Assembly (NCBI RefSeq): GCF_007991655.1
Contig: NZ_BJYT01000005.1
Coordinates: 62,001-126,000, forward strand
Source: Segetibacter aerophilus
Lineage (GTDB): Bacteria; Bacteroidota; Bacteroidia; Chitinophagales; Chitinophagaceae
Reading direction: 5' to 3'
Length of the DNA stretch: 64,000 bases
In this document: in pieces, positions 101 through 58,055 of the stretch
How positions within the stretch are numbered: position 1 is the first letter of the stretch
How the letters are laid out: each line of letters starts with the position of its first letter
Position numbers and translations under genes: made by a program
Notes under the pieces: model-generated
What the model saw: the letters and a program-made list of their open reading frames with translations, nothing else
Databases searched by the model: none
What the model was told of the DNA's origin: nothing

Positions 101-128
101 GTACAAGTGAGTGACACAACGATGTTGA
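101..128 (+). repeat. dispersed intergenic element, copy 1 (GTG/CAC class)
   Basis: GTACAAGTGAGTGACACAAC followed by GATGTTGA. It contains the palindrome GTG-A-CAC and then the small inverted repeat CAAC-GAT-GTTG. The same core recurs at ten other intergenic places in this window. It lies between the partial upstream frame and nuoI. Confidence 0.8.
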
Positions 129-195
129 TAAAAGATAAAGTGACCACCAACAAAAAGATTTAAAAAAGTCCTCTCAAAGGTGTAGGTAAATAAAG

Positions 196-226
196 TTGGT
201 AGGTTAGAGGTAGAAAAATATTTTTG
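196..226 (+). promoter_or_regulatory. putative Bacteroidota promoter for nuoI
   Basis: TTG at 196-198, a 20-nt spacer, then TATTTTTG at 219-226, which matches the Bacteroidota primary sigma pattern TTG-N19/20-TAnnTTTG. Transcription would begin about 50 nt before the nuoI ATG. This suggests nuoI-N can be transcribed separately from whatever lies upstream. Confidence 0.5.
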
Positions 227-281
227 CAAACCTTTTTAAAAAAGCCGGAAGCTGGCAGCAATTGCTAAAAGCTTTCTTTAT

Positions 282-830
282 ATGCAACCGTTAACAAAAA
301 AAGTAAAACAAGTAGAACGCAAGCCAATGACCTTTCTCGAAAGGTTATACCTTCCCGAGATTTTTAAGGGAATGGCAATTACGTTTAGTCATATTTTCAA
401 AAAAGTTCCGACGGTTAGTTACCCGGAACAAACACGTCCTTTTGCTAAAGTGTTTCGTGGCTTACACGTCTTAAATCGGGATGAAGAAGGACGAGAGAAG
501 TGTACTGCATGTGGTCTTTGTGCATTAGCCTGTCCTGCAGAAGCCATCACTATGGAAGCTGCTGAACGTGTGCGAGGAGAAGAGAATTTATATCGTGAGG
601 AGAGATATGCAGCAAAATATGAGATCAACATGCTGCGCTGTATTTTTTGTGGCCTTTGTGAAGAAGCATGCCCAAAAGATGCAATCTATTTAAGTGAAAC
701 ATTTGCTCCGGCCAACTACCAGCGTAAAGGATTTATATATGGTAAAGAAGATTTGCTGATACCTAATCCGCTTACCCAACCTGAAGAGTATGAAAAGGCT
801 AAAGGGGAAAGGGCACCGGCAACACAATAA
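282..830 (+). CDS. nuoI: NADH-quinone oxidoreductase subunit I (NuoI)
   Basis: Peripheral-arm subunit of complex I carrying two [4Fe-4S] clusters (N6a/N6b) that pass electrons from NADH toward quinone. Two typical CxxCxxCxxxCP motifs are visible: C74, C77, C80, C84 and C120, C123, C126, C130. The 182-residue length fits the family, which lacks a transmembrane part. It starts at ATG 282 and is followed after 21 bp by nuoJ, in the standard I-J-K-L-M-N order. Upstream lie a dispersed repeat and a candidate promoter rather than nuoH in immediate contact, so the preceding nuo genes are either further left or elsewhere. Confidence 0.96.
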   Translation: MQPLTKKVKQVERKPMTFLERLYLPEIFKGMAITFSHIFKKVPTVSYPEQTRPFAKVFRGLHVLNRDEEGREKCTACGLCALACPAEAITMEAAERVRGEENLYREERYAAKYEINMLRCIFCGLCEEACPKDAIYLSETFAPANYQRKGFIYGKEDLLIPNPLTQPEEYEKAKGERAPATQ

Positions 831-851
831 CAACTTTACTAACCGCCACTA

Positions 852-1355
852 ATGAGTACAACTGAAATTTTATTCTGGTTTCTTTCCGCTCTTGCACTGG
901 TCAGTGCTACAATGGTCTTAATAAGCAAAAATCCTGTTCACAGTATCTTGTGGCTGATCATTGTTTTCTTTGCAATTTCAGGTCATTACATTTTATTGAA
1001 CGCACAATTCTTGGCAATCGTTAACCTCATTGTATATGCGGGTGCTATAATGGTATTGTTCCTGTTTGTGGTGATGTTAATGAATTTGAATAGCGACTCG
1101 GAGCCACAGAAAAATAACCGGTTTAAAATTGCAGGTGCTATATCAGGGGGATGTTTAATGTTGATAATGATTGATGTAATTAGGGATGCGGGCGAGGTTC
1201 AGAACGCGAAAGCTTTGGTTAAAGAAGGCAATATAGGGTTGATAAAAAACCTTGGGATGGTGTTGTTTAAAGACTACGTAATTCCATTCGAAATAAGCAG
1301 TGTGCTGTTTTTAGCAGCAATGGTGGGTGCAGTAGTAATAGGTAAGAGGAATTAA
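852..1355 (+). CDS. nuoJ: NADH-quinone oxidoreductase subunit J (NuoJ)
   Basis: Membrane-arm subunit of complex I. The 167 residues form about five hydrophobic helices. The third helix contains NLIVYAGAIMVLFLFVVML, the hallmark of NuoJ/ND6, whose pi-bulge helix links quinone reduction to proton pumping. The C-terminal helix (FLAAMVGAVVIGKRN) ends in a basic tail. It follows nuoI by 21 bp. The 110-bp gap to nuoK is unusual for this operon and holds a CCCCTTTAGGGG palindrome. Confidence 0.95.
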   Translation: MSTTEILFWFLSALALVSATMVLISKNPVHSILWLIIVFFAISGHYILLNAQFLAIVNLIVYAGAIMVLFLFVVMLMNLNSDSEPQKNNRFKIAGAISGGCLMLIMIDVIRDAGEVQNAKALVKEGNIGLIKNLGMVLFKDYVIPFEISSVLFLAAMVGAVVIGKRN

Positions 1356-1441
1356 CAGCCTAGCCCGTAAGGGGAATAACGGAGCGAATATTTTGTGGTA
1401 ATTATTTAATAACAACTTAATTTCTAAAAAGAATTAAGGCA

Positions 1442-1465
1442 AAAGCCCCTTTAGGGGTTTGGGGT
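1442..1465 (+). repeat. CCCCTTTAGGGG palindromic element before nuoK
   Basis: AAGCCCCTTTAGGGGTTTGG followed by GGT, directly abutting the nuoK ATG at 1466. It is a 12-bp perfect palindrome followed by a second G-run. Three related copies precede nuoL and a partial one (CCCTAAAGGG, 1808-1817) follows nuoK, so this is a repeated unit inside the operon. Confidence 0.75.
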
Positions 1466-1801
1466 ATGCCAATAACATATTATATAGTCTTATCGATTGT
1501 TCTGTTTTGCATTGGGGTTGTTGGAGTATTGACGCGGAGAAATGCAATTATCATTTTTATGTGTATTGAATTAATGTTGAATGCGGTAAACCTTTTACTT
1601 GTTGCTTTTTCAAAAATGCATAATGGAAAGGCAATAGTATCAAACCCAACTTCAACTGTAGGAATAGACGGCCAGTTGTTTGTATTTTTTATAATGGTAG
1701 TTGCGGCAGCAGAGGTTTGCGTGGGTTTGTCGATTATTGTTATGATGTATCGGAATACGCATTCTGTAGATGTAAATTTCTTAAACAGGTTAAAGAATTA
1801 G
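1466..1801 (+). CDS. nuoK: NADH-quinone oxidoreductase subunit K (NuoK)
   Basis: Small proton-channel subunit of complex I, 111 residues with three transmembrane helices. The conserved membrane glutamates are visible in [18 protein letters not shown] (helix 2) and [15 protein letters not shown] (helix 3). The ATG at 1466 is immediately preceded by the G-rich palindromic repeat, so no ordinary ribosome-binding site is seen. Gaps of 110 bp upstream and 182 bp downstream, both carrying repeat elements, separate it from nuoJ and nuoL. Confidence 0.96.
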
Positions 1802-1806
1802 CCCCG

Positions 1807-1980
1807 GCCCTAAAGGGAGAAGAGAGTAAAGCAGGCTTATAAATAATTGGAGTTGGGCAAGGAGGATTAATTCAAAAACGTTTTTAAAATATATTTTCTT
1901 AAATCCCTTTAGGGATTTAGGGTTCACTTTCTTAAGCCCCTTTAGGGGTTTGGGGGCAAATTTCCTTTAGGGGTTGGGGT
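1807..1980 (+). repeat. nuoK-nuoL spacer with repeated CCCTTTAGGG palindromes
   Basis: The 182-bp spacer holds a partial unit GCCCTAAAGGGAG (1807-1819). Three units then follow in series: AAATCCCTTTAGGGATTTAG (from 1901), TAAGCCCCTTTAGGGGTTTG (from 1934) and AAATTTCCTTTAGGGGTTGG (1958-1977). The last ends four bases before the nuoL ATG. Each could fold as a short hairpin in the nuo mRNA. The origin may be a REP-like or other miniature dispersed repeat; this is inference. Confidence 0.75.
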
Positions 1981-1983
1981 AAT

Positions 1984-3906
1984 ATGGCAAAACTCGCTTA
2001 TCTGGTACCATTGTTTCCTTTGATAGGATTTCTTATCAACGGTTTAGGTCGTAAAACTTTGTCTAAATCATTGATTGGTTTGCTAGGATGTGGTGTTATC
2101 CTTGCTTCATTTGTGGTAAGTGTTGGCATCTTTTTACAGGTAAAGCAAGACGGATTTCAGCCGCAGATCGTTCACCTATTTGACTTTATAAAAGTTCAAT
2201 CCTTTAATATCCCTTTTTCCTTTCAGGTTGACCAGTTGTCTTCTTTATTTCTGCTAATCATTACAGGCGTCGGTTTTCTTATTCATTTGTATTCGACCTC
2301 ATACATGCACAATGAAGAGACGCAACACTATGGGCGGTACTTCGCTTACTTAAATCTCTTTGTGTTCTCAATGTTGCTGTTGGTTTTGGGAGCGAACTAT
2401 GTCATTATGTTTATTGGTTGGGAAGGTGTAGGACTTTGTTCATATTTATTGATTGGTTATTGGTTCAAAAACAACAACTATAACTACGCAGCCCGCAAAG
2501 CCTTTGTAATGAACCGTATTGGCGATGTCGGGTTTTTATTGGCCGTTTTTTGGATATTGGCAAAATTAGGAACAGTCTCCTACGGAGATGTTTTTGCAAA
2601 AGCTTCGACCTTCAGCACCTTTGATGTAACAGCTATCACCATGTTGTTGTTTGTTGGGGCTATGGGAAAAAGCGCTCAAATTCCTTTATACACTTGGCTA
2701 CCAGATGCAATGGCCGGCCCCACTCCAGTGTCCGCTCTCATACATGCTGCCACTATGGTTACGGCTGGTATTTACATGATTGTTCGCAGCAATGTTTTAT
2801 ATACTATGGCTCCGACAACGCAGGCGGTTGTAGCGATTGTTGGTCTGGCTACTGCATTCCTTGCAGCCACTATTGCACTTAAGCAAAACGATATTAAAAA
2901 GGTGCTGGCTTACTCAACAGTGAGCCAGCTAGGATATATGTTTTTAGGATTGGGTGTTGGTGCTTATACCGGTGCAGTTTTTCACGTAATGACTCACGCT
3001 TTTTTTAAAGCCTTATTGTTCCTTGGTGCCGGTAGCGTCATTCATGCAATGGGCAATGAGCAGGATATCCGTGTGATGGGAGGGTTGAAGAAATACATGC
3101 CTATTACTCATATCACTTTTCTGCTGGCTTGCCTCGCGATTTCAGGTATTCCACCTTTTAGCGGCTTTTTTAGTAAAGACGAAATATTGGCGGCGGCTTA
3201 TGAGCATAATAAAGTTCTCTGGTTAATCGGCGCGATTACTGCCGGTCTTACAGCTTTCTATATGTTCCGGTTGTATGTGATGACTTTTTTAGGTGGATTT
3301 AGAGGTACTCATGACCAGGAGCATCACTTGCATGAAAGTCCGTCCGCAATGACTATCCCTTTGATCGTTCTTGCGATATTAAGTGTTATTGGAGGATTCG
3401 TTGGTATTCCTGAAGCGTTTGCTCACAATGCCCATGCGTTAGAACACTTTCTTTCTCCTGTTATAGTAAAGTCTGCCGACGCCGCGCATGGTTTAGACAC
3501 CAGTACGGAATATATGCTTATGGCTATCTCCGTTGCCTTGGCTGTGATCGCTATCATTTACGCATGGACAAGGTTTAGCAAAAAACCTGAGATAGCAGAA
3601 GCAGAAGGCGCAGGAAAGCTTCTAGCAAACAGGTGGTATGTAGATGAACTGTATGATAAAATTATTGCTAACCCACTCATAGCTCTTGGAGGTTTTCTGA
3701 AAAACGTGGTTGAAAAAAGTGGAATAGATGGCTTGGTGAACGGTGTTGGAAGAGGCGTCAATTATGCAGGTCGACAGATCAGGTTGATGCAAAGTGGCCA
3801 GGTAGGAAACTATATCCTTCTGATGGTCTTAAGTATGGTTCTGATGATTATCCTTGTTTTTTATGGTAATAATTTGAATCCTGTTCTTAAATATTTTTCA
3901 AAGTAA
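1984..3906 (+). CDS. nuoL: NADH-quinone oxidoreductase subunit L (NuoL)
   Basis: Distal antiporter-like proton-pumping subunit of complex I (ND5 family). The 640 residues match the family length of about 610-650. Visible hallmarks are GWEGVGLCSYLLIGYW (glutamate of the proton channel), GKSAQIPLYTWLPDAMAGPT with the central lysine, SALIHAATMVTAGIYMIVR, and KKVLAYSTVSQLGYM. A C-terminal extension with an amphipathic lateral helix and a final transmembrane anchor (MVLSMVLMIILVFYGN) is present. It starts at ATG 1984 and nuoM follows after 19 bp. Confidence 0.97.
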   Translation: MAKLAYLVPLFPLIGFLINGLGRKTLSKSLIGLLGCGVILASFVVSVGIFLQVKQDGFQPQIVHLFDFIKVQSFNIPFSFQVDQLSSLFLLIITGVGFLIHLYSTSYMHNEETQHYGRYFAYLNLFVFSMLLLVLGANYVIMFIGWEGVGLCSYLLIGYWFKNNNYNYAARKAFVMNRIGDVGFLLAVFWILAKLGTVSYGDVFAKASTFSTFDVTAITMLLFVGAMGKSAQIPLYTWLPDAMAGPTPVSALIHAATMVTAGIYMIVRSNVLYTMAPTTQAVVAIVGLATAFLAATIALKQNDIKKVLAYSTVSQLGYMFLGLGVGAYTGAVFHVMTHAFFKALLFLGAGSVIHAMGNEQDIRVMGGLKKYMPITHITFLLACLAISGIPPFSGFFSKDEILAAAYEHNKVLWLIGAITAGLTAFYMFRLYVMTFLGGFRGTHDQEHHLHESPSAMTIPLIVLAILSVIGGFVGIPEAFAHNAHALEHFLSPVIVKSADAAHGLDTSTEYMLMAISVALAVIAIIYAWTRFSKKPEIAEAEGAGKLLANRWYVDELYDKIIANPLIALGGFLKNVVEKSGIDGLVNGVGRGVNYAGRQIRLMQSGQVGNYILLMVLSMVLMIILVFYGNNLNPVLKYFSK

Positions 3907-3925
3907 CTGCAGGTAAAAATAAAGT

Positions 3926-5359
3926 ATGATCCCAGTTTTATTAATTGTAATTCCTCTGGTAACGGGCCTGATTTCTTTCTTTCTAAAAGAGGAAAGAAGT
4001 GCAAAAGCTTTCGCTCTGCTCAGTTCGGTTGCCACACTTGCAGTTTCCCTGATTAGTCTTTTTCAATCCGGCGACTCTCTTTCTACGGACGCCTCGTGGT
4101 TGCCCATGTTAGGCAGTCGTTTTTTAGTTTCCCTGGATGGGATGGGAAAAATTCTTACCCTGCTAACCGCTGTTTCTTTTCCAATCATATTTGCTGCGAC
4201 CTATAATAATAAGTACAAAAATCCTAACTCGTTTTATGGCTTCATGCTACTAACACAGGCAGGATTAATGGGTGTCTTTTGTGCCATGGATCTTTTCTTA
4301 TTTTATTTTTTCTGGGAGCTTGCTCTTATCCCTGCTTACTTTCTTTGCTCCAAGTGGGGTGGAGAAAAAAGGATTGCAGTTACTTTTAAGTTTTTCGTGT
4401 ACACTTTCCTTGGTTCGCTATTAATGCTCGTAGGTATTTTATTCGTTTACTTTAAAACGCCCGATCATTCTTTCGCAATTAGTTCATTGCATAATCTTGC
4501 ACTTACTGCTGGAGAGGAAAACTTTATATTTTGGTTATTTTTTATAGCCTTTGCCATTAAGATGCCTGTTTTCCCTTTTCATACATGGCAGCCCGATACA
4601 TACGAGCAAGCTCCTACAGCTGTAACTATGGTACTGAGTGGTATTATGGTTAAAATGGGTGTCTTCGCAGTGATCAGGTGGTTACTACCGATGTTCCCAG
4701 CTGCTTCTGTAAGGATGGCGGACTTTATAATGATCTTTGCGGTTGTAGGAATGATCTACGCAAGTTTGATTGCCATCAGGCAAGATGATATGAAGAGATT
4801 GGTTGCTTACTCGTCAATAGCCCACATTGGTTTGATGGCTGCAACTATGTTTACCGGTAGTGCATTTGGTATGCAGGGTGTGATATTTCAGATGTTTGCG
4901 CACGGCGTTAATATAATCGGCCTGTGGATAGTTATAGATGTAATTGAGCAGCAACTAGGAACCCGTAAATTTAGTGAGTTAGGTGGACTTGCTCAAAAAG
5001 CGCCCGTTCTTGCCATCATGTTTGTAATCATGTCTTTTGCTAATATAGCCTTGCCTCTCACTAATTCCTTTGTTGGAGAATTTTTGATGTTCAATAGCGT
5101 TTTCAATCATAGTGTTGTGCTGGGTGCTGTGGCATGCATCAGTATTATACTTGCAGCTGTTTACACTTTATGGATGGTGCAGAAAGTGTTCTATGGCGAG
5201 GTGACGAATGAAGAGCGGATTACATTGAACGTTCCAATCAATACCCAATTAATGTTGGCTATATTAGTCGCAGTTGTTTTGTTCTTTGGTGTGTATCCTC
5301 AACCTATGATTAATTTATGCGCCGAAACTGTAACAAAAATTATAGCTCAAATAAAATAG
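3926..5359 (+). CDS. nuoM: NADH-quinone oxidoreductase subunit M (NuoM)
   Basis: Second antiporter-like subunit of complex I (ND4 family), 477 residues with about 14 transmembrane helices. Family motifs are FFWELALIPAYFLCSKWGG (channel glutamate), KMPVFPFHTWQPDTYEQAPT (helix-7 lysine and loop), and MKRLVAYSSIAHIGLM. It lies 19 bp after nuoL and 18 bp before nuoN, so the three are almost certainly cotranscribed. No key residue is missing. Confidence 0.97.
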   Translation: MIPVLLIVIPLVTGLISFFLKEERSAKAFALLSSVATLAVSLISLFQSGDSLSTDASWLPMLGSRFLVSLDGMGKILTLLTAVSFPIIFAATYNNKYKNPNSFYGFMLLTQAGLMGVFCAMDLFLFYFFWELALIPAYFLCSKWGGEKRIAVTFKFFVYTFLGSLLMLVGILFVYFKTPDHSFAISSLHNLALTAGEENFIFWLFFIAFAIKMPVFPFHTWQPDTYEQAPTAVTMVLSGIMVKMGVFAVIRWLLPMFPAASVRMADFIMIFAVVGMIYASLIAIRQDDMKRLVAYSSIAHIGLMAATMFTGSAFGMQGVIFQMFAHGVNIIGLWIVIDVIEQQLGTRKFSELGGLAQKAPVLAIMFVIMSFANIALPLTNSFVGEFLMFNSVFNHSVVLGAVACISIILAAVYTLWMVQKVFYGEVTNEERITLNVPINTQLMLAILVAVVLFFGVYPQPMINLCAETVTKIIAQIK

Positions 5360-5377
5360 CGCCTCATTAGTTTACTT

Positions 5378-6748: not shown

Positions 6749-6813
6749 GAGAGATTTTAAAAAAGGCAAATATTCGCCGTGATAGTTTTGTAGCCAGCTT
6801 TACAACAATGCTC

Positions 6814-6837
6814 AATATCGTTGTGTCACTCACTTTT
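6814..6837 (-). repeat. dispersed intergenic element, copy 2 (GTG/CAC class)
   Basis: On the minus strand it reads AAAAGTGAGTGACACAACGA followed by TATT. It shares GTGAGTGACACAACGAT with copies 1 and 3 and lies in the 239-bp gap between nuoN and the FtsX-type permease. Confidence 0.75.
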
Positions 6838-6976
6838 GCTGTAAATTCATTACTCTGCATTTTCACTTGCTGTGCTGTCTCGCTCTTGTTAATTCTATCT
6901 CTCACCTACCGCTTATAGTCAAGCCTTCCGCCTCTATTCATCTCTCTTAAGGGCTTTTCGACTTCTAAGTTTACCT

Positions 6977-6984
6977 TATATTTG
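6977..6984 (+). promoter_or_regulatory. putative -7 box (TATATTTG) touching the permease start codon
   Basis: TATATTTG fits TAnnTTTG exactly and lies 3 nt before ATG 6988. A -33-like TTT is about 19 nt upstream but is weak. If used, the transcript would start at or next to the ATG and so be nearly leaderless. Confidence 0.4.
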
Positions 6985-6987
6985 GCT

Positions 6988-8259: not shown

Positions 8260-8325
8260 AATGTACTCCCCTTTGGATTTATGAAACGTCAGCTCTGCAC
8301 TATAAGAGTTGAATAATGAGTTGCG

Positions 8326-8353
8326 GTACAAGTGAGTGACACAACGATCTGGA
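8326..8353 (+). repeat. dispersed intergenic element, copy 3 (GTG/CAC class)
   Basis: GTACAAGTGAGTGACACAAC followed by GATCTGGA. It is identical to copy 1 for the first 23 bases and then diverges, losing the GTTG half of the small inverted repeat. It lies between the permease and a terminator. Confidence 0.8.
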
Positions 8354-8387
8354 TTAAACTTATTTTGCCCGAAAACAAAAACGATAT

Positions 8388-8421
8388 AAAAAAGCCCGAT
8401 AGTAAACTACCGGGCTTTTTT
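8388..8421 (-). terminator. intrinsic terminator, bidirectional
   Basis: A 16-base arm AAAAAAGCCCGATAGT is matched by ACTACCGGGCTTTTTT with a 2-nt gap and one mismatch, which becomes a G-U pair in the minus-strand RNA. It lies 17 bp beyond the end of the minus-strand metalloprotease gene and can also stop plus-strand readthrough from the permease. Confidence 0.85.
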
Positions 8422-8438
8422 ACATTTAATGCTTTGTT

Positions 8439-15883: not shown

Positions 15884-15924
15884 TTATGTTACTTGTAGGT
15901 TTATGTGATGAAATACTGGTTTTA

Positions 15925-15953
15925 GTACGAGTGTGCGCCGCAACAATGATTCA
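15925..15953 (+). repeat. dispersed intergenic element, copy 4 (GCG/CGC class)
   Basis: GTACGAGTGTGCGCCGCAAC followed by AATGATTCA. The palindrome here is GCG-C-CGC. The centre base differs from other copies but both arms remain complementary. It lies between the MFS and PQQ dehydrogenase genes. Confidence 0.65.
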
Positions 15954-16005
15954 AGAAGCAGTGAAGTACGATACACAAAATTTTTCATTGGGCCAAAGTC
16001 GCCTC

Positions 16006-19680: not shown

Positions 19681-19747
19681 TTGTATGATTTTATTTTATA
19701 GCAGTTCTTTTTTATGAGCCTGGCAGTTGAACAAATTATTAAGCCTT

Positions 19748-19768
19748 CGTTGCGTCGCACTCTTGTAC
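19748..19768 (-). repeat. dispersed intergenic element, copy 5 (GCG/CGC class)
   Basis: The minus strand reads GTACAAGAGTGCGACGCAAC followed by G. The palindrome is GCG-A-CGC. It lies in the 203-bp gap between the Gfo/Idh/MocA gene and the sugar phosphate isomerase-like gene, the only sizeable break in this otherwise compact minus-strand run. Confidence 0.75.
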
Positions 19769-19883
19769 TTGTAGAAATTCTATTCGTCGCTGAGATGCAT
19801 CGTTATCGTTGATCCCTGGTTTAGATGGTTAGTCACCAGCTTTTAAACTCATAACTGATAACTCATAATTCATAACTCTAAAC

Positions 19884-30257: not shown

Positions 30258-30935
30258 AAAATATGTTTTTACTACTGATATAAATTTTTGTACCACAACA
30301 ATTGCTACAGAAAAGACTGGGGCATGAGGGTAGCTCCATTACCCCTAATTATTTTGTCGCTTTAATCTAAATTAGAAAATTGTATAACGACAGTTTGCCA
30401 ATGGTTTAAAAAGGATAAACAAAACTTTTTTAGGTGTCTCGCTCCAAGTGTTTTTCTGCTCCTAATTCAACAGACCGTCTAGCACCACTTGTTTCTAAGG
30501 TTTGAAACATTTGGGGCAGAAACAGTGCAAATCGAAAAATCCGTTTATCTAGTCATTAAAAAGAAATTTGAAAACTACTTCTAAGCATTGATAAAAAAGC
30601 TTTATCGCTACATTTGATTAGTCGGGTTCTTTATGATATTTTCGGAAGTAAGTTCTCTGATGATTATTTCCTTGTTGGGAAAAAAGAATACGTGCTGCCT
30701 GGCTTTATTTAAAAACAATTAACGATGCTATATGAGGTTTAATCAATTTAAATCGCCTTCTCTTTTTTGTTTAAAACCAACTTTTTTATTTCATTTATAT
30801 AATTATCAACCGTATCAAAGCTTTGGTACATGTTCCTTCGAATTAGGAAGATCATCTTTTACAGGATCCGCCGTTAACAAGAAAACTCTTTTACTAACTA
30901 TAAAACGTAAAAATCAATTCAGTAAATTCTACATT
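30258..30935. promoter_or_regulatory. 678-bp gene-free stretch with a distant promoter candidate
   Basis: No gene-like frame is convincing here. At 30588-30616 there is TTG, 18 nt, then TACATTTG, a good TTG-N19-TAnnTTTG promoter for the plus strand. If real, the first RraA-like gene has a leader of about 310 nt. An in-frame extension from 30732 (68 codons) has no signal-peptide or domain character. A weak inverted similarity (TTTTTCTGCTCC near 30450 against GGGGCAGAAACA near 30513) is also present. Confidence 0.35.
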
Positions 30936-31868
30936 ATGAAGACAAGAATATTTCTTACCGCCTTTGTTCTCTCATCATTTTTTGTAAAAGCCCAGCACGT
31001 TGGTTCAACCCCCGAATATGTGAAGATGTTGACTTCCAAGTGGGAGGGAGAACGCAGCGCTGACGGACGCCCGAAGGTATCTGATGGTCTACTCGAACGC
31101 TTACAAAATTGCACGCTGGAGCAAATCTGGGGTTACCTCGGCAACAAAGGTTTCCGCAACCAGGTGGAGAAAAATTGGGTAATTCTAAAACCGGGCGAAA
31201 CTATGGTAGGCCGAGTGGTGACTGCCCAGTTTATGCCCATGAGACCTGACCTTGATACGTTTGTAAGAGTTCAGGGTAAAGCTGAAGGTCGCTCGCAGCA
31301 CGGCGGCATCAACATCTGGCCGATAGACATTTTGACCAAAAATGATATTTATGTAGCTGATGGATTTGGTAAGATTAAAGATGGTACCCTCATAGGCTCA
31401 AGCCTGGGCAATGCGATCTATGGCAAAACAGGGAAGGGCGTTATTTTCTATGGTTCCATCCGCGATATGCAGGAGTTGAAAGAAACTAAAGGTTTCAACG
31501 CCTGGATTAAAGGAAGCGATCCGTCATACATTAAGGACATGACTCCCACTTCTATCAACGCGCCAATTCGGGTGGGCGATGTAAGTGTGCTACCGGGTGA
31601 TGTGGTTTTTGCGAATGAATATGGAGTTGTGTTTATACCCGCCTACCTGATGGAAGGCCTTGTGACTGCCTCTGAAATGACCGGGCTTCGGGATGAATTT
31701 GAGCGGGCAATGCTGCAATCAGGCAAATATCCGTCTGGCGAAGTGCATGGGGATTGGGCAGAGAATATTAAAGAGGAATTTCGGGCATGGTTTAAAAAGT
31801 ATCCAAAGAAAACTGCCATTACATCAAAAGAGGTAGAGGCTTACTTGAAGAAAGAAGGACGCAATTAG
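30936..31868 (+). CDS. exported RraA-like family protein (first copy)
   Basis: RraA/HMG-aldolase-fold protein with a signal peptide (MKTRIFLTAFVLSSFFVKAQ), 310 residues. The core shows MVGRVVTAQFMPMRPD, DIYVADGFGKIKDGTLIGSS, LGNAIYGKTGKGVIFYGSIRD (the Gly-rich loop with Arg-Asp of the substrate/metal site) and GDVSVLPGDVVFANEYGVVFIP. Family members cleave pyruvate-derived 4-carboxy-4-hydroxy acids or inhibit RNase E, normally in the cytoplasm; export is unusual. A closely similar second copy and an MFS transporter follow. ATG 30936 is chosen because it gives the signal peptide. Confidence 0.82.
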   Translation: MKTRIFLTAFVLSSFFVKAQHVGSTPEYVKMLTSKWEGERSADGRPKVSDGLLERLQNCTLEQIWGYLGNKGFRNQVEKNWVILKPGETMVGRVVTAQFMPMRPDLDTFVRVQGKAEGRSQHGGINIWPIDILTKNDIYVADGFGKIKDGTLIGSSLGNAIYGKTGKGVIFYGSIRDMQELKETKGFNAWIKGSDPSYIKDMTPTSINAPIRVGDVSVLPGDVVFANEYGVVFIPAYLMEGLVTASEMTGLRDEFERAMLQSGKYPSGEVHGDWAENIKEEFRAWFKKYPKKTAITSKEVEAYLKKEGRN

Positions 31869-31922
31869 TAAAAACCATTGCTGCTACTTTTATTCTTTTT
31901 GGCAAGCATTTGTAGTTTGACC

Positions 31923-31950
31923 AAACATCGTTGCGACGCTCCGTTCAAAA
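31923..31950 (-). repeat. dispersed intergenic element, copy 6 (GCG/CGC class)
   Basis: The minus strand reads TTTTGAACGGAGCGTCGCAA followed by CGATGTTT. The right part (TCGCAACGATGTTT) matches the family and the left part diverges. The palindrome is GCG-T-CGC, so the arms are kept while the centre changes. It lies between the two RraA-like genes. Confidence 0.6.
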
Positions 31951-32034
31951 GTAGTTTTTCAAAGGATCTTGTTGGAAGCGACTCTTGGGCGAGTTTGTGG
32001 GATCAGATCAATATTGTTGCTTGAAGAAAAAAAA

Positions 32035-32062
32035 GTACAAGTGTGCGACGCAACGATGTTTA
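32035..32062 (+). repeat. dispersed intergenic element, copy 7 (GCG/CGC class)
   Basis: GTACAAGTGTGCGACGCAAC followed by GATGTTTA. Compared with copy 1, three bases differ, and two of these are the paired T-to-C and A-to-G changes that keep the palindrome (GTG-A-CAC to GCG-A-CGC). It shares a 275-bp spacer with copy 6 in opposite orientation. Confidence 0.8.
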
Positions 32063-32143
32063 ATAGTAGTTGTTTGTTGGGTTAATGAAAAACCTCAAGC
32101 CTTCCTTTGAAGGAAAATAACATAAAAAATCAGAGTTAGAATA

Positions 32144-33073
32144 ATGAAAATTACCGCTGTTGTTTTGTTGGCTTTTGTTTGTAGCCTTTTCTGTGCCGGT
32201 CCCCTGGTAGCGCAAACTATTTCTAAAGACGAATTGATTTTTCTTACTTCCGAATGGAAAGGGGAGCGCTTTGCTGATGGCCGCCCAAAGATTTCGGATG
32301 ATCTGTTAAAAAGGGCGAAAAACATTGGGATTGACGATGCCTGGACCGTCTTGAAAAATGAAGGCTATACAAACCAGTTCGAAGGCAACTGGAAGATGGT
32401 AGAGAACAATGTGGCTGTTGTGGGGCGTGCGGTTACTGCTATGTTTATGCCGACAAGACCCGACATCGAAAAGAACATTAAGGCTCGCGGGGTAACTCAA
32501 GGCAGGAAAGGCAATACGAATTCGTGGCCGATAGAAACGCTGACGAAAGGAGACGTATATGTGGCAGATGGTTTTGGAAAAATTGCAGGAGGAACGTTGA
32601 TGGGCTCGACGCTTGGCAACGCCATTTTTAGCAAAACAGGAAATGGGGTAGTGTTTAACGGTGCGGCAAGAGACATCGAAGGACTGCAGGAAATAAAAGG
32701 TTTTAATGCTTTTGTGAGAGATTTTCATCCTTCGTTTTTAGAAGATATGGTATTGATGGGTTTGAACACGCCCATAAGAATTGGAACCGTAATGGTTTTG
32801 CCGGGCGACCTTGTAATCGCTCAAAGAGAAGGAGTACTTTTTGTTCCGGCACATCTTGCGGAGCAGGTCGTTAGCACAGCCGAATTTGTAGTGCGTAAGG
32901 ACCAGTTCGGTTTCGAGATGGTGAAGTCGGGCAAATACACCACAGGGCAAATAGATAGTCAATGGACCGATGACATTAAAACGGGGTTCCTTAAATGGTT
33001 GGAGCAACACCCCGAGTTGGGAAAGATGACCCGGGCAGAACTCGATAAGGTGATGAGTAAAAGAACCTGGTAA
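32144..33073 (+). CDS. exported RraA-like family protein (second copy)
   Basis: Paralogue of the preceding RraA-like gene, 309 residues, with a signal peptide ending GPLVAQ. The same order of motifs is kept: TSEWKGERFADGRPKISDDLL, VVGRAVTAMFMPTRPD, DVYVADGFGKIAGGTLMGST, NGVVFNGAARDIEGL (Arg-Asp of the active site) and GDLVIAQREGVLFVPA. Similarity along the whole length points to tandem duplication followed by divergence. It is 61 bp upstream of the MFS gene and probably cotranscribed. The paralogues may form hetero-oligomers or use different substrates. Confidence 0.83.
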   Translation: MKITAVVLLAFVCSLFCAGPLVAQTISKDELIFLTSEWKGERFADGRPKISDDLLKRAKNIGIDDAWTVLKNEGYTNQFEGNWKMVENNVAVVGRAVTAMFMPTRPDIEKNIKARGVTQGRKGNTNSWPIETLTKGDVYVADGFGKIAGGTLMGSTLGNAIFSKTGNGVVFNGAARDIEGLQEIKGFNAFVRDFHPSFLEDMVLMGLNTPIRIGTVMVLPGDLVIAQREGVLFVPAHLAEQVVSTAEFVVRKDQFGFEMVKSGKYTTGQIDSQWTDDIKTGFLKWLEQHPELGKMTRAELDKVMSKRTW

Positions 33074-42774: not shown

Positions 42775-43296
42775 TTAATGCTTACTAACAACCTTTTCAA
42801 CCACTTTTTTTAATTGCTGAATATGTCGCTGGGTATGGAAGATGATAAAGTATAATAGCTCTAGCTTGGTTAGTTCGCCAAAGCCGGGTACGTTGATCGC
42901 TTCAAATTCGTTCACTGCCTTACTTAATTCTTTTGCATCTTCCGTTGTCTTCTTTAGCTCGTAAACAAACGTTTCTTTTTTATAGCTTAATTGTGTTGGT
43001 ACTACCGGTGCAGGTGATTGAAATTTATTGGTAAAATCAAGAAACAGACTTTTTAGTTCAGGTATTCGTTGGTCAGCGTTCCTGGCAACTAATTTACCTT
43101 CTGCCTTCAGTGCATTCACTATAGACTTGTTTGACTTTATGATGTGCTCGCAAACCTGCGCCGCGGTCCAGCTTCCTTCAAAAGGGATGGCGGTAAATTC
43201 TTCTTCGGTCATCTTTTCGGCCAGCCGAAGTAATTGTGACGAGATCTCCTCGTAGCTCTTGACCAGTTCATCAATGTATAATTTCTCTGCTATCAT
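42775..43296 (-). CDS. DinB family protein
   Basis: DinB/YfiT-like four-helix bundle, 173 residues. The N-terminal helix YEEISSQLLRLAEKMTEEEF is followed by SWTAAQVCEHIIKSN (first metal histidine) and the C-terminal LYFIIFHTQRHIQQLKK (two further histidines), the typical metal triad. DinB-fold enzymes are often thiol-dependent S-transferases or isomerases; the role here is unknown. Confidence 0.85.
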   Translation of the reverse strand: MIAEKLYIDELVKSYEEISSQLLRLAEKMTEEEFTAIPFEGSWTAAQVCEHIIKSNKSIVNALKAEGKLVARNADQRIPELKSLFLDFTNKFQSPAPVVPTQLSYKKETFVYELKKTTEDAKELSKAVNEFEAINVPGFGELTKLELLYFIIFHTQRHIQQLKKVVEKVVSKH

Positions 43297-43328
43297 AAAC
43301 TTTGTTTTACGGACTTTTGTACAAGTAG

Positions 43329-43355
43329 CAACATCGTTGTGTCACTCACTTTTAC
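43329..43355 (-). repeat. dispersed intergenic element, copy 8 (GTG/CAC class)
   Basis: The minus strand reads GTAAAAGTGAGTGACACAAC followed by GATGTTG. It retains both the GTG-A-CAC palindrome and the CAAC-GAT-GTTG inverted repeat, as in copy 1. It lies between the DinB gene and the second VOC gene. Confidence 0.8.
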
Positions 43356-43418
43356 ATTATTGCTTCTTTCAACATTGAACTAACTCGTACTACGTTTTAA
43401 GGAAGCGAAGGAGTTTTC

Positions 43419-44257: not shown

Positions 44258-44293
44258 AATGCGCAGCTGTTTTAAGTTGATTACACATTTGCT

Positions 44294-44321
44294 GTACAAG
44301 TGAGTACACAACAATGTTCAG
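44294..44321 (+). repeat. dispersed intergenic element, copy 9 (degenerate)
   Basis: GTACAAGTGAGTACACAACA followed by ATGTTCAG. One G is missing, so GTGACAC has become GTACAC, and CAACGATG has become CAACAATG. It is the only copy in which the small palindrome is broken. It lies in the 187-bp divergent region before the AraC-type gene. Confidence 0.65.
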
Positions 44322-44409
44322 TATTGCTGTTTCCTGACAACCACATTGCCATACAAACCTACTGTCTTTATTCATGTTTGAAAAGGTGTAACTACGGCAA
44401 TGTAAGGGG

Positions 44410-50074: not shown

Positions 50075-50089
50075 TTTAAAAAATTTGGG

Positions 50090-51599: not shown

Positions 51600-51722
51600 T
51601 CCTCAAATTTTGATTGTGCAAGCAGAAAAGGAAGTTACGGTAATCTTTGATTGTATTTTTTTTTGAACTTATGTGCTTGTTTTGTTTCGTTTGTACCGGC
51701 TTTAGCACTACTATAAAACTTT

Positions 51723-51743
51723 TGTTGCGTCGCACTCGTGTAC
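51723..51743 (-). repeat. dispersed intergenic element, copy 10 (GCG/CGC class)
   Basis: The minus strand reads GTACACGAGTGCGACGCAAC followed by A. The palindrome is GCG-A-CGC; the right flank has lost the CGATG match. It lies between the Gfo/Idh/MocA and ABC exporter genes. Confidence 0.7.
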
Positions 51744-51796
51744 TATCTGCCCCCGCCGCCGCACTGAGAAAACAACTAGTTTGAATGATGTATGCA

Positions 51797-53656: not shown

Positions 53657-53772
53657 TTGTAAAAGTAAGGGAGTTGCGGCTTTTGCTTAGGACTTAAAGA
53701 GGAAGAAAAGTAAAAACTGATATTGTCTTAAAAAGTAAAAACGTTATAAAAACATTCAAACTTACATGTGCC

Positions 53773-53976
53773 TTAACTCATTTTTTTAATTCTTAGTTTA
53801 CGTTTATCCAAGACTGCGAAAGCATTTAATAATTCTTCTACAATTATAGCTAAATCGTCTATCCCTGGCATTAATTGTTGAACAGAAAGAACGTTATAGC
53901 CTTCCTTCTGCAATGCAGCTGTTATTCTTGCATCAGTACTTTCATCTATAATTATTAGTGGGAAGCTATTCGACAT
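53773..53976 (-). pseudogene. truncated DUF5615 (PIN-like toxin) remnant
   Basis: 67 residues beginning MSNSFPLIIIDESTDARITAAL and continuing KEGYNVLSVQQLMPGIDDLAIIVEELL, which resembles the first half of DUF5615 PIN-like nuclease toxins. It then ends in an unrelated basic tail (NAFAVLDKRKLRIKKMS) where family members carry ILITEDKDF-type motifs. Usual length is about 110-120 residues, so it looks decayed. Its ATG overlaps the end of the upstream DUF433 gene by 11 bp (ATGTCGAATAG), the usual toxin-antitoxin arrangement. Confidence 0.55.
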
Positions 53977-54190
53977 CCAATAATATTTCATTCCTTACCA
54001 ATGCAGCACCGTAAGAAATGCAAGCTAAAATAGCTTCTCGGGTAAGAAAAGGGTAGGCTACCAAAAGTTCTTCAATTGTCTCCCCTGCGCCTATCTTTTC
54101 CAGGATTAAGTCTACACCTATCCTGGTACCGTTTATCACGGCTTTTCCTCTTAAAATACCTGGTCTATACTCTACAAATTCGTTTGCCAT
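53966..54190 (-). CDS. DUF433 family antitoxin-like protein
   Basis: 74-residue protein of the DUF433 family: EYRPGILRGKAVINGTRIGVDLILEKIGAGETIEELLVAYPFLTREAILACISYGA, with the characteristic RPGILRGKAVINGTRI segment. These small winged-helix proteins act as antitoxins to DUF5615 PIN-like nucleases. The open frame extends 23 codons upstream, but ATG 54190 gives the family start. Its partner gene immediately downstream seems truncated, so this may be an orphan antitoxin. Confidence 0.85.
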   Translation of the reverse strand: MANEFVEYRPGILRGKAVINGTRIGVDLILEKIGAGETIEELLVAYPFLTREAILACISYGAALVRNEILLDVE

Positions 54191-54264
54191 AAAAATACTT
54201 TGTCTAAAATTACGAAGATATTTTTTGCTTCTTTGCCTTCTTAAGCTTGTCGCAAACATGCATA

Positions 54265-54298
54265 AAAAAAGCCGCTAGTTCATTACTAACAGCTTTTA
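54265..54298 (-). terminator. intrinsic terminator of the NIPSNAP gene
   Basis: On the minus strand AAAAGCTGTTAGT, AATGA, ACTAGCGGCTTTTTT forms a stem with a few G-U pairs and a T-run, 19 bp beyond the gene end. Confidence 0.75.
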
Positions 54299-54316
54299 TA
54301 AATAACTAATTCTTTT

Positions 54317-55117
54317 TTACACCTGCGAGAAACTGGTAGGAACCAAAAACGTGCGGGTTATCCTGCTTACTATATTGGCATCTTCATACCCCGGGATTGC
54401 TTTTATTCTTGCCCACTCAGGATCTGATCCAAATGCCTTCCAGTTTTTGTCGTGCTCAGCCATATCGTCGAACGTAAGCATATAAGTTAAGTTGGGTCTC
54501 ATCTCACCGATAATCGTTTCACCAAAAAACACGGGAGTTAGTCCAACTCGTTTGAATATAGCTATTTCACCTACGTTATCAAACATGTCAATTTTCTTCT
54601 TGCCCGCAGCTTCACTTGCGCTTTCATAGCGACGTAATTCAAATATTCTGCTCTTGTTTTCTGGTACTTGAATTTTAGGCATTCCTGAAAAAGCCTTTAA
54701 AAAAGAGCTTTGTATTCTATCATAGGCAGGCTCTTTTGCAGGGGCATTTAGGTAGGCAGCTCCGGCTTGCTGATAAGTTGTATCCTTTGCAAGCTTATCT
54801 GTTATATCCATAAAGTCCTTTGCAGAGTTAAATGGAATGACGGCGTATAACTTTGATTGTCCCTCTGGCTTTTGTTCGGTAAAGACGCCAATGTTTTTAC
54901 TTCCCAACCGGTTTAAAGCTGGAATGGCCGCGTTCTGAAAATAATCTTCCACCAGTTTTTGCTGCGCAGAATTCTTCAAAGTATATACCCTCAGTTCATA
55001 AAATTCAGGAGAGCTTTTGGCAAAAAAATCTTTTTCAGAAGCTTTGGCTACCATAGCTGATAAACCTGTTAAAGATCCTGTGAGCATTGATGCCTTTACA
55101 AACGATCGTCTTTTCAT
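54317..55117 (-). CDS. exported NIPSNAP family protein
   Basis: Two NIPSNAP-type (dimeric alpha/beta barrel) domains, 266 residues: FYELRVYTLKNSAQQKLVEDYFQNAAIPALNRLG in the first half and RIFELRRYESASEAAGKKKIDMF in the second. The N-terminus (MKRRSFVKASMLTGSLTGLS) is a twin-arginine-type signal, so the protein is exported. Function of these proteins in Bacteroidota is unknown. It is followed by a terminator and preceded by a repeat-rich spacer. Confidence 0.85.
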   Translation of the reverse strand: MKRRSFVKASMLTGSLTGLSAMVAKASEKDFFAKSSPEFYELRVYTLKNSAQQKLVEDYFQNAAIPALNRLGSKNIGVFTEQKPEGQSKLYAVIPFNSAKDFMDITDKLAKDTTYQQAGAAYLNAPAKEPAYDRIQSSFLKAFSGMPKIQVPENKSRIFELRRYESASEAAGKKKIDMFDNVGEIAIFKRVGLTPVFFGETIIGEMRPNLTYMLTFDDMAEHDKNWKAFGSDPEWARIKAIPGYEDANIVSRITRTFLVPTSFSQV

Positions 55118-55196
55118 TATCTAATTTTGTGGCTAAATTATTAAAAATGTGCAAGTGTTAGTGAAAGTGGTTGTTTTTCGATGGTCGTTAGTTTTT

Positions 55197-55394
55197 ATCG
55201 TTAATCGGGAGTTTCTTTGAATCGTTAGTCGCAAGTTTTTGGATCGTAAATCGCAAGCTCGCGGGAGGTAAATCTAGCTCACTAGCGATTAACGATTACT
55301 AGCGATCAACGTACCTCACTAGCCATTAACGAGTACTAGCGAGCGATCAACGTACCTCGCTAGCGATTAACGTTTACTAGCGATCAACGTACTT
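55197..55394. repeat. tandem and inverted minisatellite
   Basis: Three adjacent units of 37, 41 and 37 bp at 55280-55316, 55317-55357 and 55358-55394 share the pattern CACTAGCGATTAACG then TACTAGCGATCAACGTACCT. The middle unit has a 4-bp GAGC-type insertion. Just before, at 55197-55257, three shorter units of about 23 bp carry the reverse-complement core (ATCGTTAATCG, ATCGTTAGTCG, ATCGTAAATCG). The block lies between the NIPSNAP and TonB-dependent receptor genes. It has no unique spacers and no cas genes, so it is not CRISPR. Confidence 0.85.
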
Positions 55395-55416
55395 GGCAAT
55401 TGACGCTACCAAAAAC

Positions 55417-57903
55417 CTACTCCACCGGCGCAGTTACATCCTCACTTCTCTCTCTATCTCTCTTAAACTCAAGGTGGCCGAACTTGAGGGTAAAGTTGAG
55501 ACCAAATGATCTGAAAGGTATACTCCGCACGTTGGTAACTACGAAATTAGGACCGTACAATTCTGTTCTCTGCTCGACAGCATCTTTGAAAGGATTGGTG
55601 GTAGTAAATGCAATGCTGGCATTTTTCTTCCAAAATTGTTTTCTCAAAGCAAAGCTGTAGTTGGTGAATGAAGGATATTTTCCCTGCGCTTCGTTGCGGG
55701 GTGAATTGAAGTTTCCAAAAAACTCACCAGCAAGCGTATTACTAAACTGGTAGCTTGTGTTCAGGTTAAACCTGTAATTGAAGCTCGAAGTATTATAGCC
55801 TTTATCAATCGCATTGATAATATCACGATGAAAAAAAGACAGGTTTGTACGAATACTCATCTTTTCGATAACCCTCAGATCACTGAAAACATTTATACCC
55901 ACATTTTTCTCAGTACCTATATTTTGCCTGCTCGAAACGGTTACATGAGTGTAGGTACTATCTCCGACCCGGTACTCAGGATAATAAGTTACAAAAGGCT
56001 GGATATCCTCAAAATTAAGCCGGTAGAATAAATTGACCATAAAAGATCCAGACTTCCCAAGGTCGCGGTTGTAAGCGAGCTCGGTACGATGACTTTCTTC
56101 GGGAACGAGATTGCTGTTTCCAGTTGTAATGTTTTTAGGATCACTGGTATTAATAAAAGGATTTAATTCCTGGTACTCGGGACGGCCAATCCTTTTTGAA
56201 TAGCTAAGCTTCAATGTGCCACCTTCTTCACCGAGCTTTTTAGACAAGTAAATAGTAGGAACAAACGTGTTGTATCCGGGTATCTTCCGTTGAGTTTGAG
56301 CGTTTGAATAAAAAGCATCAATTTCTGTTCGTTCGTATCGTCCGCCTGCCTTTGCGTCAAACAATTTGCCTACCGGAAAGGTCAGTTCAGAATAAAGTGC
56401 GTATACCTTTTGATGATAGTTTAGGTTGTTGGTTAGATAAGGATCAGGCAGGTAAGTATTCGCGCTGCTCTTGTATTTAAGCACATCAGAACTCGTCACA
56501 ATATCCATCAATTGAACTTTACTTCCGAAGCCAAGTATTACGTCCTTCTGCAGCGGCTGCGTATAGTCGATCATCAACTCATGTTCGTTATTGGTACCCG
56601 GATTAGTACTGTTAGTGCCATAATACAATTGGTGAGCGGGCTGTAAAAACTGCATGTTTGCCGCAGTATTATAATTGTTTCCAAAAGTGGAATTAAGCTC
56701 AACATTTAACTCCTGGTCTTCTTTTGCAAAAGTTCGCTTATAGTTAAGGCTTGCATCAATATCATGAATATGAAAAGCATTGTCGATGTTGTTAACAGAC
56801 GCTATGCTTGAAACACCCTGAGACCCGATGCCACCTTTTATGTTTTGAGTTTGATTCGTTAGTCCAGTTCCGTTGTTTCCAAAACTGTTATAGGAAAACG
56901 AACCTGTAAAACTATTCTTATCGTTCATGGTGTAATCAAAACCTCCCCCCGTTTGAAAACCATGACGAGCTATTCTGCTTAATCCGTCCTGGTGCAAAAA
57001 AATAGTAGTGCTTGCCGCAGTGTCGGTTGTTATGCGGTCAGAATAAGAAGGTGTGCCGGTACGCAAGCGCGTATTGCCACTAACAAAAGCATTCACAGCA
57101 AGCTTGCCTTTTCGCGCATTAAAGTTGAATGAACCATTTTCTGTTCTTGTTCCGCCGGTAAGCGAAATATTTCCGTTAACGCCCTGCGCATTGCTTTTTT
57201 TCAAAATGATATTGATAATGCCACCCATGCCTTGTGCATCGTACTTGGCGCCGGGATTTGTAATCACCTCTATACTCTTAATCTGGTTGGCGGGTATCGA
57301 TTGCAACACGTCTGCGATGCTACTTCCAAAAGCGGATGATGGTTTCCCATTTATTAAAAACCTGATGCCTGCGCTGCCGGCCAGTTCAACATTTCCATCG
57401 ATACCCACTGTTACCTGCGGCACTTTCCTAAGTATATCAGTCGCTACACCGGTTTGAGAGGTTATGTCTTTTTCAGCATTAAAAACCAGTTTATCAATTT
57501 TATTCTCAATCAACCTTCCTTGCGTGGTAACGGTTACGTTTTGCAGGGTAGTCGCTGTTGCAAGCAGCGCAATGTTTTTAAGATCGATAACGTCGTTCTT
57601 TTTTGCAATAGACACCTCGTTAATCATTCTTGCTTTGTACCCGATAAAGTCAGCTTCAACAGTATAGGTACCCAGTGGAATGTTCGTAATAGCAAAGGTT
57701 CCGGTAGCACTAGAGGTCGTACCGTTCACCACTTTCTTTGTAGCCGGATCAATGATGCTAATGGTTGCATATTCGATGGCTTTCTTAGATACAGAATCGA
57801 TGATCGTTCCCACAATCTTTCCATTTCCCGCCGCTTTTTCCTGGGCGTTTACTACTATAGCAAAGAAACAAACGAGGAGGGAAAATGTAAATTTCTTCAA
57901 CAT
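55417..57903 (-). CDS. TonB-dependent receptor-like outer membrane protein
   Basis: Outer membrane beta-barrel protein, 828 residues. Signal peptide (to about 20) is followed by a CarboxypepD_reg-like domain (GKIVGTIIDSVSKKAIEYATISIID, to about 110), a plug domain (TLQNVTVTTQGRLIENKIDKLVFN and IPANQIKSIEVITNPGAKYDAQGMGGIINIILKK) and a long barrel of the OMP_b-brl_3 type. It would bind a ligand and import or signal using ExbBD-TonB. No SusD partner is adjacent, so a polysaccharide uptake role is not indicated; the ligand is unknown. Confidence 0.9.
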   Translation of the reverse strand: MLKKFTFSLLVCFFAIVVNAQEKAAGNGKIVGTIIDSVSKKAIEYATISIIDPATKKVVNGTTSSATGTFAITNIPLGTYTVEADFIGYKARMINEVSIAKKNDVIDLKNIALLATATTLQNVTVTTQGRLIENKIDKLVFNAEKDITSQTGVATDILRKVPQVTVGIDGNVELAGSAGIRFLINGKPSSAFGSSIADVLQSIPANQIKSIEVITNPGAKYDAQGMGGIINIILKKSNAQGVNGNISLTGGTRTENGSFNFNARKGKLAVNAFVSGNTRLRTGTPSYSDRITTDTAASTTIFLHQDGLSRIARHGFQTGGGFDYTMNDKNSFTGSFSYNSFGNNGTGLTNQTQNIKGGIGSQGVSSIASVNNIDNAFHIHDIDASLNYKRTFAKEDQELNVELNSTFGNNYNTAANMQFLQPAHQLYYGTNSTNPGTNNEHELMIDYTQPLQKDVILGFGSKVQLMDIVTSSDVLKYKSSANTYLPDPYLTNNLNYHQKVYALYSELTFPVGKLFDAKAGGRYERTEIDAFYSNAQTQRKIPGYNTFVPTIYLSKKLGEEGGTLKLSYSKRIGRPEYQELNPFINTSDPKNITTGNSNLVPEESHRTELAYNRDLGKSGSFMVNLFYRLNFEDIQPFVTYYPEYRVGDSTYTHVTVSSRQNIGTEKNVGINVFSDLRVIEKMSIRTNLSFFHRDIINAIDKGYNTSSFNYRFNLNTSYQFSNTLAGEFFGNFNSPRNEAQGKYPSFTNYSFALRKQFWKKNASIAFTTTNPFKDAVEQRTELYGPNFVVTNVRSIPFRSFGLNFTLKFGHLEFKRDRERSEDVTAPVE

Positions 57904-57931
57904 GATAAAACTTTTACTTTCTAAGAGGGTG

Positions 57932-57939
57932 CAAAAGTA
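57932..57939 (-). promoter_or_regulatory. putative -7 box (TACTTTTG) for the receptor gene
   Basis: On the minus strand TACTTTTG matches TAnnTTTG, 28 nt before the ATG at 57903. No clear -33 TTG is present. Confidence 0.35.
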
Positions 57940-58033
57940 TTGATGAAAATTGGCGCATTTTTCACTTTAGCACTTATTTCCATTTCTCTCGTTGCGTTTC
58001 TTTTGGGGCAAGCAGAAGTGCTTTTATGTTGCT

Positions 58034-58055
58034 CCGGTTGTGTCACTCTCTTGTA
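58034..58055 (-). repeat. dispersed intergenic element, copy 11 (GTG/CAC class)
   Basis: The minus strand reads GTACAAGAGAGTGACACAAC followed by CGG. The GTG-A-CAC palindrome is intact while the CGATG flank has changed to CCGGA. It lies in the 270-bp divergent spacer between the receptor gene and lepB. Confidence 0.7.

What the first reader, a model, noticed from the sequence alone, without database searches (positions are those of the whole stretch)
101..58055. Dispersed intergenic element with compensatory arm changes, eleven copies in 64 kb
A short element with core GTGAGTGACACAACGATG or GTGTGCGACGCAACGATG occurs at 101, 6814(-), 8326, 15925, 19748(-), 31923(-), 32035, 43329(-), 44294, 51723(-) and 58034(-). 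All copies are between genes and occur on both strands. Five have GTG-n-CAC and five have GCG-n-CGC; the centre base varies (A, C or T) while the arms change together. Only one copy (44294) breaks the symmetry. Several copies also carry CAAC-GAT-GTTG. Paired changes imply selection on a symmetric protein site or on paired RNA/DNA, rather than simple decay of a junk repeat. I do not recognise a named family.
Basis: seen in the sequence. Interest (0 to 1): 0.75.

Follow-up and report, generated by a model that had tools for sequence, protein, structure and literature searches.

The report
Orientation-policed intergenic repeat of Segetibacter
A short DNA element sits in hundreds of gaps between genes in a group of soil bacteria; its symmetric core is kept intact where it lies, and neighbouring copies seldom point the same way, so something seems to act on them in pairs.

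Summary
The window has ten intact core copies (five GTG-n-CAC, five GCG-n-CGC) and one broken copy. The genome, by inference a Segetibacter, has 624 strict matches against 16 for the reversed pattern. Copies are about 80 nt long; 123 of 128 lie between genes, on no preferred strand. Arms change together: 282 of 286 are paired. But both arm types recur across genera, so most of that count is inherited.

Copies behave like insertions: gaps without one are about 120 bp shorter. Shared copies keep the core at 91% identity, flanks at 59-66%. The single strand does not fold, so a protein-bound dyad fits better than a hairpin.

New: same-strand copies are scarce within 3 kb (49, against 247 inverted), none below 330 bp, while inverted pairs occur at chance density. 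REP elements share the short-range part; in them the kilobase part is untested (4 pairs). I read it as a REP-like, non-autonomous element acted on pairwise by an unidentified protein. Its abundance does not track RAYT transposases.

The parts
79..170 (+). copy 1, type A, core GAGTGACACAAC 109-120
   Evidence: extent by the consensus; type A in G006, G009, G002 and type B in G003, G004 at the orthologous place
6770..6861 (-). copy 2, type A, core 6820-6831, after nuoN
   Evidence: also present in G009 and G005, absent in G006, G008, G003, G004; G001 has one on the other strand
8304..8395 (+). copy 3, type A, core 8334-8345
   Evidence: present in G006, G005, G009, G001, absent in G008 where the gap is 71 against 179 bp
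15903..15994 (+). copy 4, GCG-C-CGC, core 15933-15944
19699..19790 (-). copy 5, type B, core 19749-19760
31880..31971 (-). copy 6, type C (GCG-T-CGC), core 31930-31941; forms a '-+' pair with copy 7, 113 bp apart
32013..32104 (+). copy 7, type B, core 32043-32054
43286..43377 (-). copy 8, type A, core 43336-43347
44272..44362 (+). copy 9, broken core GAGTACACAAC 44302-44312
51674..51765 (-). copy 10, type B, core 51724-51735
57987..58078 (-). copy 11, type A, core 58037-58048

Best explanation
A REP-like, non-autonomous insertion element of about 80-115 bp with a protein-binding dyad at its heart. Shown: hundreds of intergenic copies; insertion or loss as a unit; vertical inheritance between close species; a 12-nt core kept while flanks decay; arms coupled; same-strand copies scarce within about 3 kb. 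Inferred: a protein binds GNGYGNCRCAAC, probably one subunit per half-site, which is why both arms change together; the same or a partner protein can act on two copies at once. Two copies on the same strand up to 2-3 kb apart are substrates for removal of the DNA between them (or are barred at insertion), while inverted copies are not, so what survives is single copies and inverted pairs. The protein is not identified.
For: Copy number from 8 to 1089 among ten genomes of the genus and 1 against 88 in two genomes of genus g92. Orthologous gaps: median own-minus-relative length +124 bp when only own has the copy (14 comparisons, 6 distinct gaps), -117 when only the relative has it (12 of 12 distinct), -9 when both do (25), -4 when neither does (113). 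Shared copies are on the same strand in 24 of 25. Core identity in length-matched orthologous gaps 131 of 144 against 234 of 396 and 192 of 290 in flanks (12 comparisons). Pairs within 3 kb: 247 inverted, 49 same strand; 3-20 kb: 516 inverted, 542 same. With strands shuffled within each stretch, 111.9 (sd 7.2, lowest 84 of 2000) same-strand pairs are expected against 49 of 296 seen. In own contig C1, within 3 kb, 34 inverted and 6 same against 34.0 expected of each: same-strand pairs are missing, inverted ones not in excess. Seen separately in own, G001, G049 (another genus) and the X loci, and in a single-contig genome, G013 (11 inverted, 1 same within 3 kb, part of its list). Equal for like arms (135 inverted, 24 same) and unlike arms (92, 15), which speaks against plain homology. 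Distance predicts strand better than the number of genes between (log-likelihood -248.0 against -259.5).
Against: No enzyme or binding protein was identified. No excision or transposition was seen and no exact empty site could be aligned; relatives are too far apart. Core constraint in place is not explained by a selfish element alone. No local inversion was found between own and relatives (no positive control), so a recombinase that also acts on inverted copies is unlikely. The same-strand pairs that do exist at 330-2500 bp are not weaker copies (27 against 138 inverted, P 0.43). Plain deletion between direct repeats over long times is not excluded. '+-' pairs are also rare below 330 bp (9 against 66 '-+'), which deletion between direct copies does not explain.
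Confidence: 0.42

Rival explanations
1. An atypical REP family moved by the group-5 (subclass 2.6) RAYT found in Bacteroidetes.
For: The genome encodes a RAYT over NCBI's cut-off (NF047646, 95 bits), with one copy about 390 bp from it. [quoted passage not shown] Inverted close pairs are the rule in REP dimers (E. coli adjacent REPs 55 inverted, 1 same).
Against: Of 10 genomes with 20 or more strict copies among 147, 6 have a RAYT over the cut-off; of the other 137, 56 do (P 0.32). G049 (339 copies) and G003 (148) have none over it. The RAYT loci L088, L089, L091 and L101 have no convincing copy within about 1.5 kb or the contig end. The single strand does not fold. Doublets are not in excess: 8 pairs below 330 bp in C1 against 22.8 expected. 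Both ++ and -- are depleted on a contig that looks like one replichore, not expected of a strictly lagging-strand enzyme.
Confidence: 0.22
2. A host site: binding site of a chromosome-organising protein, or a DNA uptake sequence, spread by insertion or drive and kept for the host.
For: Core kept in place while flanks decay; equal numbers on both strands; no bias relative to gene direction.
Against: Absent or rare in sister genomes (G008: 8 copies). Almost only intergenic, unlike uptake sequences (recalled). Does not explain why same-strand pairs are missing.
Confidence: 0.2
3. Ordinary direct-repeat deletion: copies are inert, and slippage or recombination removes same-strand neighbours over time.
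For: Depletion falls with distance, the known behaviour of such deletion (recalled).
Against: No difference between like and unlike arms; distance rather than gene number matters; 3 of 37 pairs are same-strand with one gene between at 1-2 kb, which would need most genes to be dispensable; the core is under constraint.
Confidence: 0.13
4. A transcribed RNA element or terminator.
For: Copies lie near 3' ends of genes (median 89 bp).
Against: No strand preference relative to genes, no fold, no Rfam hit.
Confidence: 0.03

Closest known systems
REP sequences (GTAG- and CGTC-tagged families)
   Same: Short, extragenic, hundreds of copies, patchy between related species, subfamilies with alternative complementary stem bases, close pairs inverted (passages of PMC3733652).
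   Different: Stem of 3 bp around one base instead of 5-13 bp; left tag GTAC/GTTG-AAG, not GTAG or CGTC; strand exclusion seen out to about 3 kb.
REPINs of Pseudomonas fluorescens SBW25
   Same: Inverted pairs in intergenic space.
   Different: There doublets are in excess, singlets more diverse and next-neighbour distances random above 200-400 bp (passages of PMC3116915); here singlets are the norm, doublets are not in excess, and the strand rule runs on to about 3 kb. Singlets here are also somewhat more diverged than paired copies (mean 2.55 against 1.70 mismatches in own).
RAYT group 5 / TnpA-REP subclass 2.6 repeats
   Same: Same phylum; atypical structure; gene present in this genome.
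   Different: No consistent linkage or co-occurrence.
pdif modules of Acinetobacter plasmids (Xer sites)
   Same: Genes bracketed by inversely oriented short sites (search listing only; detail recalled).
   Different: Chromosomal, hundreds of copies, diverse genes between with no recurring cargo; no Xer arm similarity tested.

Membership tests
REP | dispersed, extragenic, high copy number | tested here: met
   624 strict matches; 123 of 128 intergenic
REP | palindrome able to form a hairpin (5-13 bp stem) | tested here: not met
   z +1.57, minimum energy -1.5 kcal/mol, one consensus tested
REP | terminal GTAG or CGTC tag | tested here: not met
   conserved left flank is GTACAAG, or GTTGAAG in G049
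REP | flanks a RAYT gene | tested here: not met
   one copy about 390 bp from the own RAYT; none convincing at four other group-5 loci
REPIN | inverted doublet is the replicating unit (doublets in excess) | tested here: not met
   8 pairs below 330 bp against 22.8 expected in C1; G049 has more close pairs (20) but no random expectation was computed for it
REPIN | close pairs inverted | tested here: met
   75 of 75 pairs below 330 bp
MITE | terminal inverted repeats and target duplication | tested here: inconclusive
   the two ends of the consensus are not inverted repeats (read); target duplication could not be aligned
DNA uptake sequence | drives uptake of own DNA | not testable with these tools
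   needs a transformation assay
Xer/dif site | XerC and XerD binding arms | not tested
   no dif of this genus was located

The most novel reading that the evidence does not exclude
The element is the site of an unknown, orientation-selective DNA-processing system: an enzyme that recognises both arm types, pairs copies lying on the same strand within about 3 kb and removes what lies between, so that it shapes gene order and loss across these chromosomes while sparing inverted pairs. It would be a chromosome-wide, resolvase-like or single-strand-excision system with hundreds of native sites, tolerated because its core also serves the host.
Probability: 0.25. Interest if true: 0.82.

Novelty: new variant of a known kind. 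Interest (0 to 1): 0.58.

Why it matters
If a repeat can police the orientation of its own copies over kilobases, bacterial intergenic repeats are not inert: they would be active sites that delete or forbid certain arrangements, and could steer gene loss. The element gives hundreds of natural replicates per genome and sister species with and without it (8 against up to 1089 copies), so the mechanism can be tested. It also gives a symmetric binding site with two coupled alleles, a handle for finding the protein.

Tried and rejected
RNA or DNA hairpin of the unit: folds worse than shuffles. Rfam at gathering thresholds: nothing in the window. Promoter, terminator or 3' UTR element: no strand bias against genes. 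Cargo transposon with the copies as ends: 185 proteins lying between neighbouring copies show no dominant family; the largest cluster, 5 proteins, includes orthologues of one locus. Phage element: one stretch in viral contigs. Subclass 1.2 Y1 transposases as movers: no match to PF01797 at all in G007, which has 136 copies. Site-specific inversion: no strand switch between own and relatives. Weakness of the surviving same-strand copies: not seen. E. coli REP control: my first all-pairs table (101 inverted, 64 same below 330 bp) is confounded by alternating arrays; the adjacent-only count is 55 to 1, so the short-range rule is shared with REPs, and at 330-3000 bp there are only 4 pairs (3 inverted, 1 same), which decides nothing. 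Copy distribution: 18 of 69 divergent, 54 of 131 co-directional and 9 of 21 convergent gaps of 200 bp or more hold a copy (summed; my notebook entry of 18 of 75 was a miscount). Literature: searches gave no description of this element in the held library; papers outside it were not searched.

Full report
What was checked. The window is G000:C5:62001-126000 of a 5.89 Mb genome in 79 contigs. Its name is not given. I infer Segetibacter, because same-genus genomes have contigs whose lengths equal those of named Segetibacter records (for example 1,235,065, 38,162 and 62,866 bases). The strict core occurs 624 times in the genome against 16 for the reversed pattern.

Anatomy. In 109 copies from 864 kb and 292 type A and B copies from own and related DNA, conservation runs from about -30 to +50 around the core: an A-rich left part, GTACAAG, one base, GNGYGNCRCAAC, RATG, a looser middle, then GCYGG and an A-rich tail. 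Types: A GAGTGACACAAC, B GTGCGACGCAAC, D GTGTGACACAAC, with GTACAAG on the left in the consensus; C GAGCGTCGCAAC and E ATGCGACGCAAC, mostly with GAACG on the left. The consensus does not fold as single-stranded DNA.

Coupled arms. In a set anchored on the flanks with no condition on the arms, 282 of 286 copies with standard arms are paired (203 + 79 against 3 + 1). The list printed was cut and did not show the single GTG/CGC case. A further 18 of the 404 hits have one standard arm only; the other hits have neither and many of these are probably chance. Position 1 (A or T) occurs with both arm pairs (types A, D, B, C), so the pair at positions 3 and 7 is coupled beyond linkage to it. At one orthologous gap own has type B and G007 type A, with the 3' side 32 of 38 identical. 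At another, own, G006, G009 and G002 have type A, and G003 and G004 type B. Gene conversion or a second insertion is not excluded.

Insertion and constraint. In 164 comparisons of orthologous gaps, presence of a copy on one side only goes with about 120 bp more DNA (medians +124 in 14 comparisons over 6 distinct own gaps, -117 in 12 over 12), against -9 (25) and -4 (113) otherwise. Between own and G006, 13 gaps have a copy in both, 1 in own only, 2 in G006 only; overall 24 of 25 shared cases have a copy on the same strand. In one search both copies had to look like the element, which favours conservation. In one search only the own copy was chosen, in 12 length-matched comparisons: the core is 131 of 144 identical, flanks 234 of 396 and 192 of 290; 9 of 12 keep the core with at most 2 mismatches. 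The other three are two gaps without a copy (G003, G004) and the A/B switch (G007).

Orientation. All pairs of copies, with repeated contexts removed (inverted / same strand): below 330 bp 75 / 0; 330-700 7 / 1; 700-1200 26 / 3; 1.2-2 kb 69 / 13; 2-3 kb 70 / 32; 3-4.5 kb 89 / 87; 4.5-7 kb 100 / 101; 7-10 kb 106 / 113; 10-20 kb 221 / 241. Strand shuffling within stretches gives 111.9 (sd 7.2) same-strand pairs within 3 kb against 49 seen. The binomial P of 6e-33 is nominal, as pairs are not independent. In own contig C1, random placement in gaps predicts 34.0 of each kind within 3 kb; 34 inverted and 6 same-strand were seen. So same-strand pairs are missing and inverted pairs are not in excess. 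The rule appears in own, G001, G049 (another genus) and the X loci. In G013, a single contig, so not an assembly artefact, the listed part gives 11 inverted and 1 same within 3 kb. Like and unlike arms behave alike. Within inverted pairs below 330 bp, '-+' (5' sides facing) is 66 and '+-' 9. Adjacent REPs of E. coli are also inverted below 330 bp (55 to 1), and REP dimers in print are rarely head-to-tail, so this part is REP-like. At 330-3000 bp E. coli gave only 4 pairs, so I cannot say whether the kilobase effect is special.

Mechanism. Distance explains the effect better than the number of genes between, so loss of dispensable genes alone is a poor account. Unlike arms being excluded as strongly as like arms argues against pure sequence homology. 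Both ++ and -- are depleted (3 and 3 in own), although C1 has a mainly positive GC skew (14 of 16 bins), which argues against an enzyme limited to the lagging strand. No local inversion was found. A protein that recognises both types and acts on same-strand pairs in double-stranded DNA fits best; no protein was found. The own genome has three PF01797 genes, one of them a RAYT, but copy number and RAYT presence are not associated in 147 family genomes (6 of 10 against 56 of 137, P 0.32).

Verdict. A real, abundant, constrained, REP-like element that fails the hairpin, tag and RAYT tests of REPs and the doublet test of REPINs, with a strand exclusion reaching about 3 kb. New variant of a known kind; the mechanism is open.

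Noticed in passing
window 1443-1464, 1901-1922, 1934-1955, 1959-1980: Four copies of a short palindromic repeat (AAGCCCCTTTAGGGGTTTGGGG and variants) in two gaps between genes, terminator-like; a second intergenic repeat family.
   Followed up: no
window 55258-55392: Three imperfect 37-41 bp direct repeats (CTAGCGATTAACG...) beyond the 3' end of the 828-aa ORF at 55417-57903 (-).
   Followed up: no
L240/L241 (G005:C175), orthologue of window copy 1: The core is replaced by a GC-rich palindromic stretch (CACCCCCGCCGTGGCGGG) between an intact left flank and right flank, as if another repeat had landed in or swapped the core.
   Followed up: no
L337 3762 and L342 18197 (G049): Two '-+' pairs only 26 bp apart whose left flanks fuse into a near-perfect palindrome around CTTCAGCTGAAG.
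   Followed up: partly
L031 1367 (-) (G000:C2): A type C copy lies about 70 bp before the open frame of an IS200-like Y1 transposase.
   Followed up: partly
G006:C42, G008:C122, G009:C237 near nuo-like paralogues: Y1 transposase genes sit close to a second nuo-like cluster in three species and no PF01797 match was found on C1 of the own genome, where that cluster also lies.
   Followed up: no
window 30732-31868 and 32144-33073: Two neighbouring RraA-like / aldolase-like genes flank the '-+' pair at 31930 and 32043.
   Followed up: no
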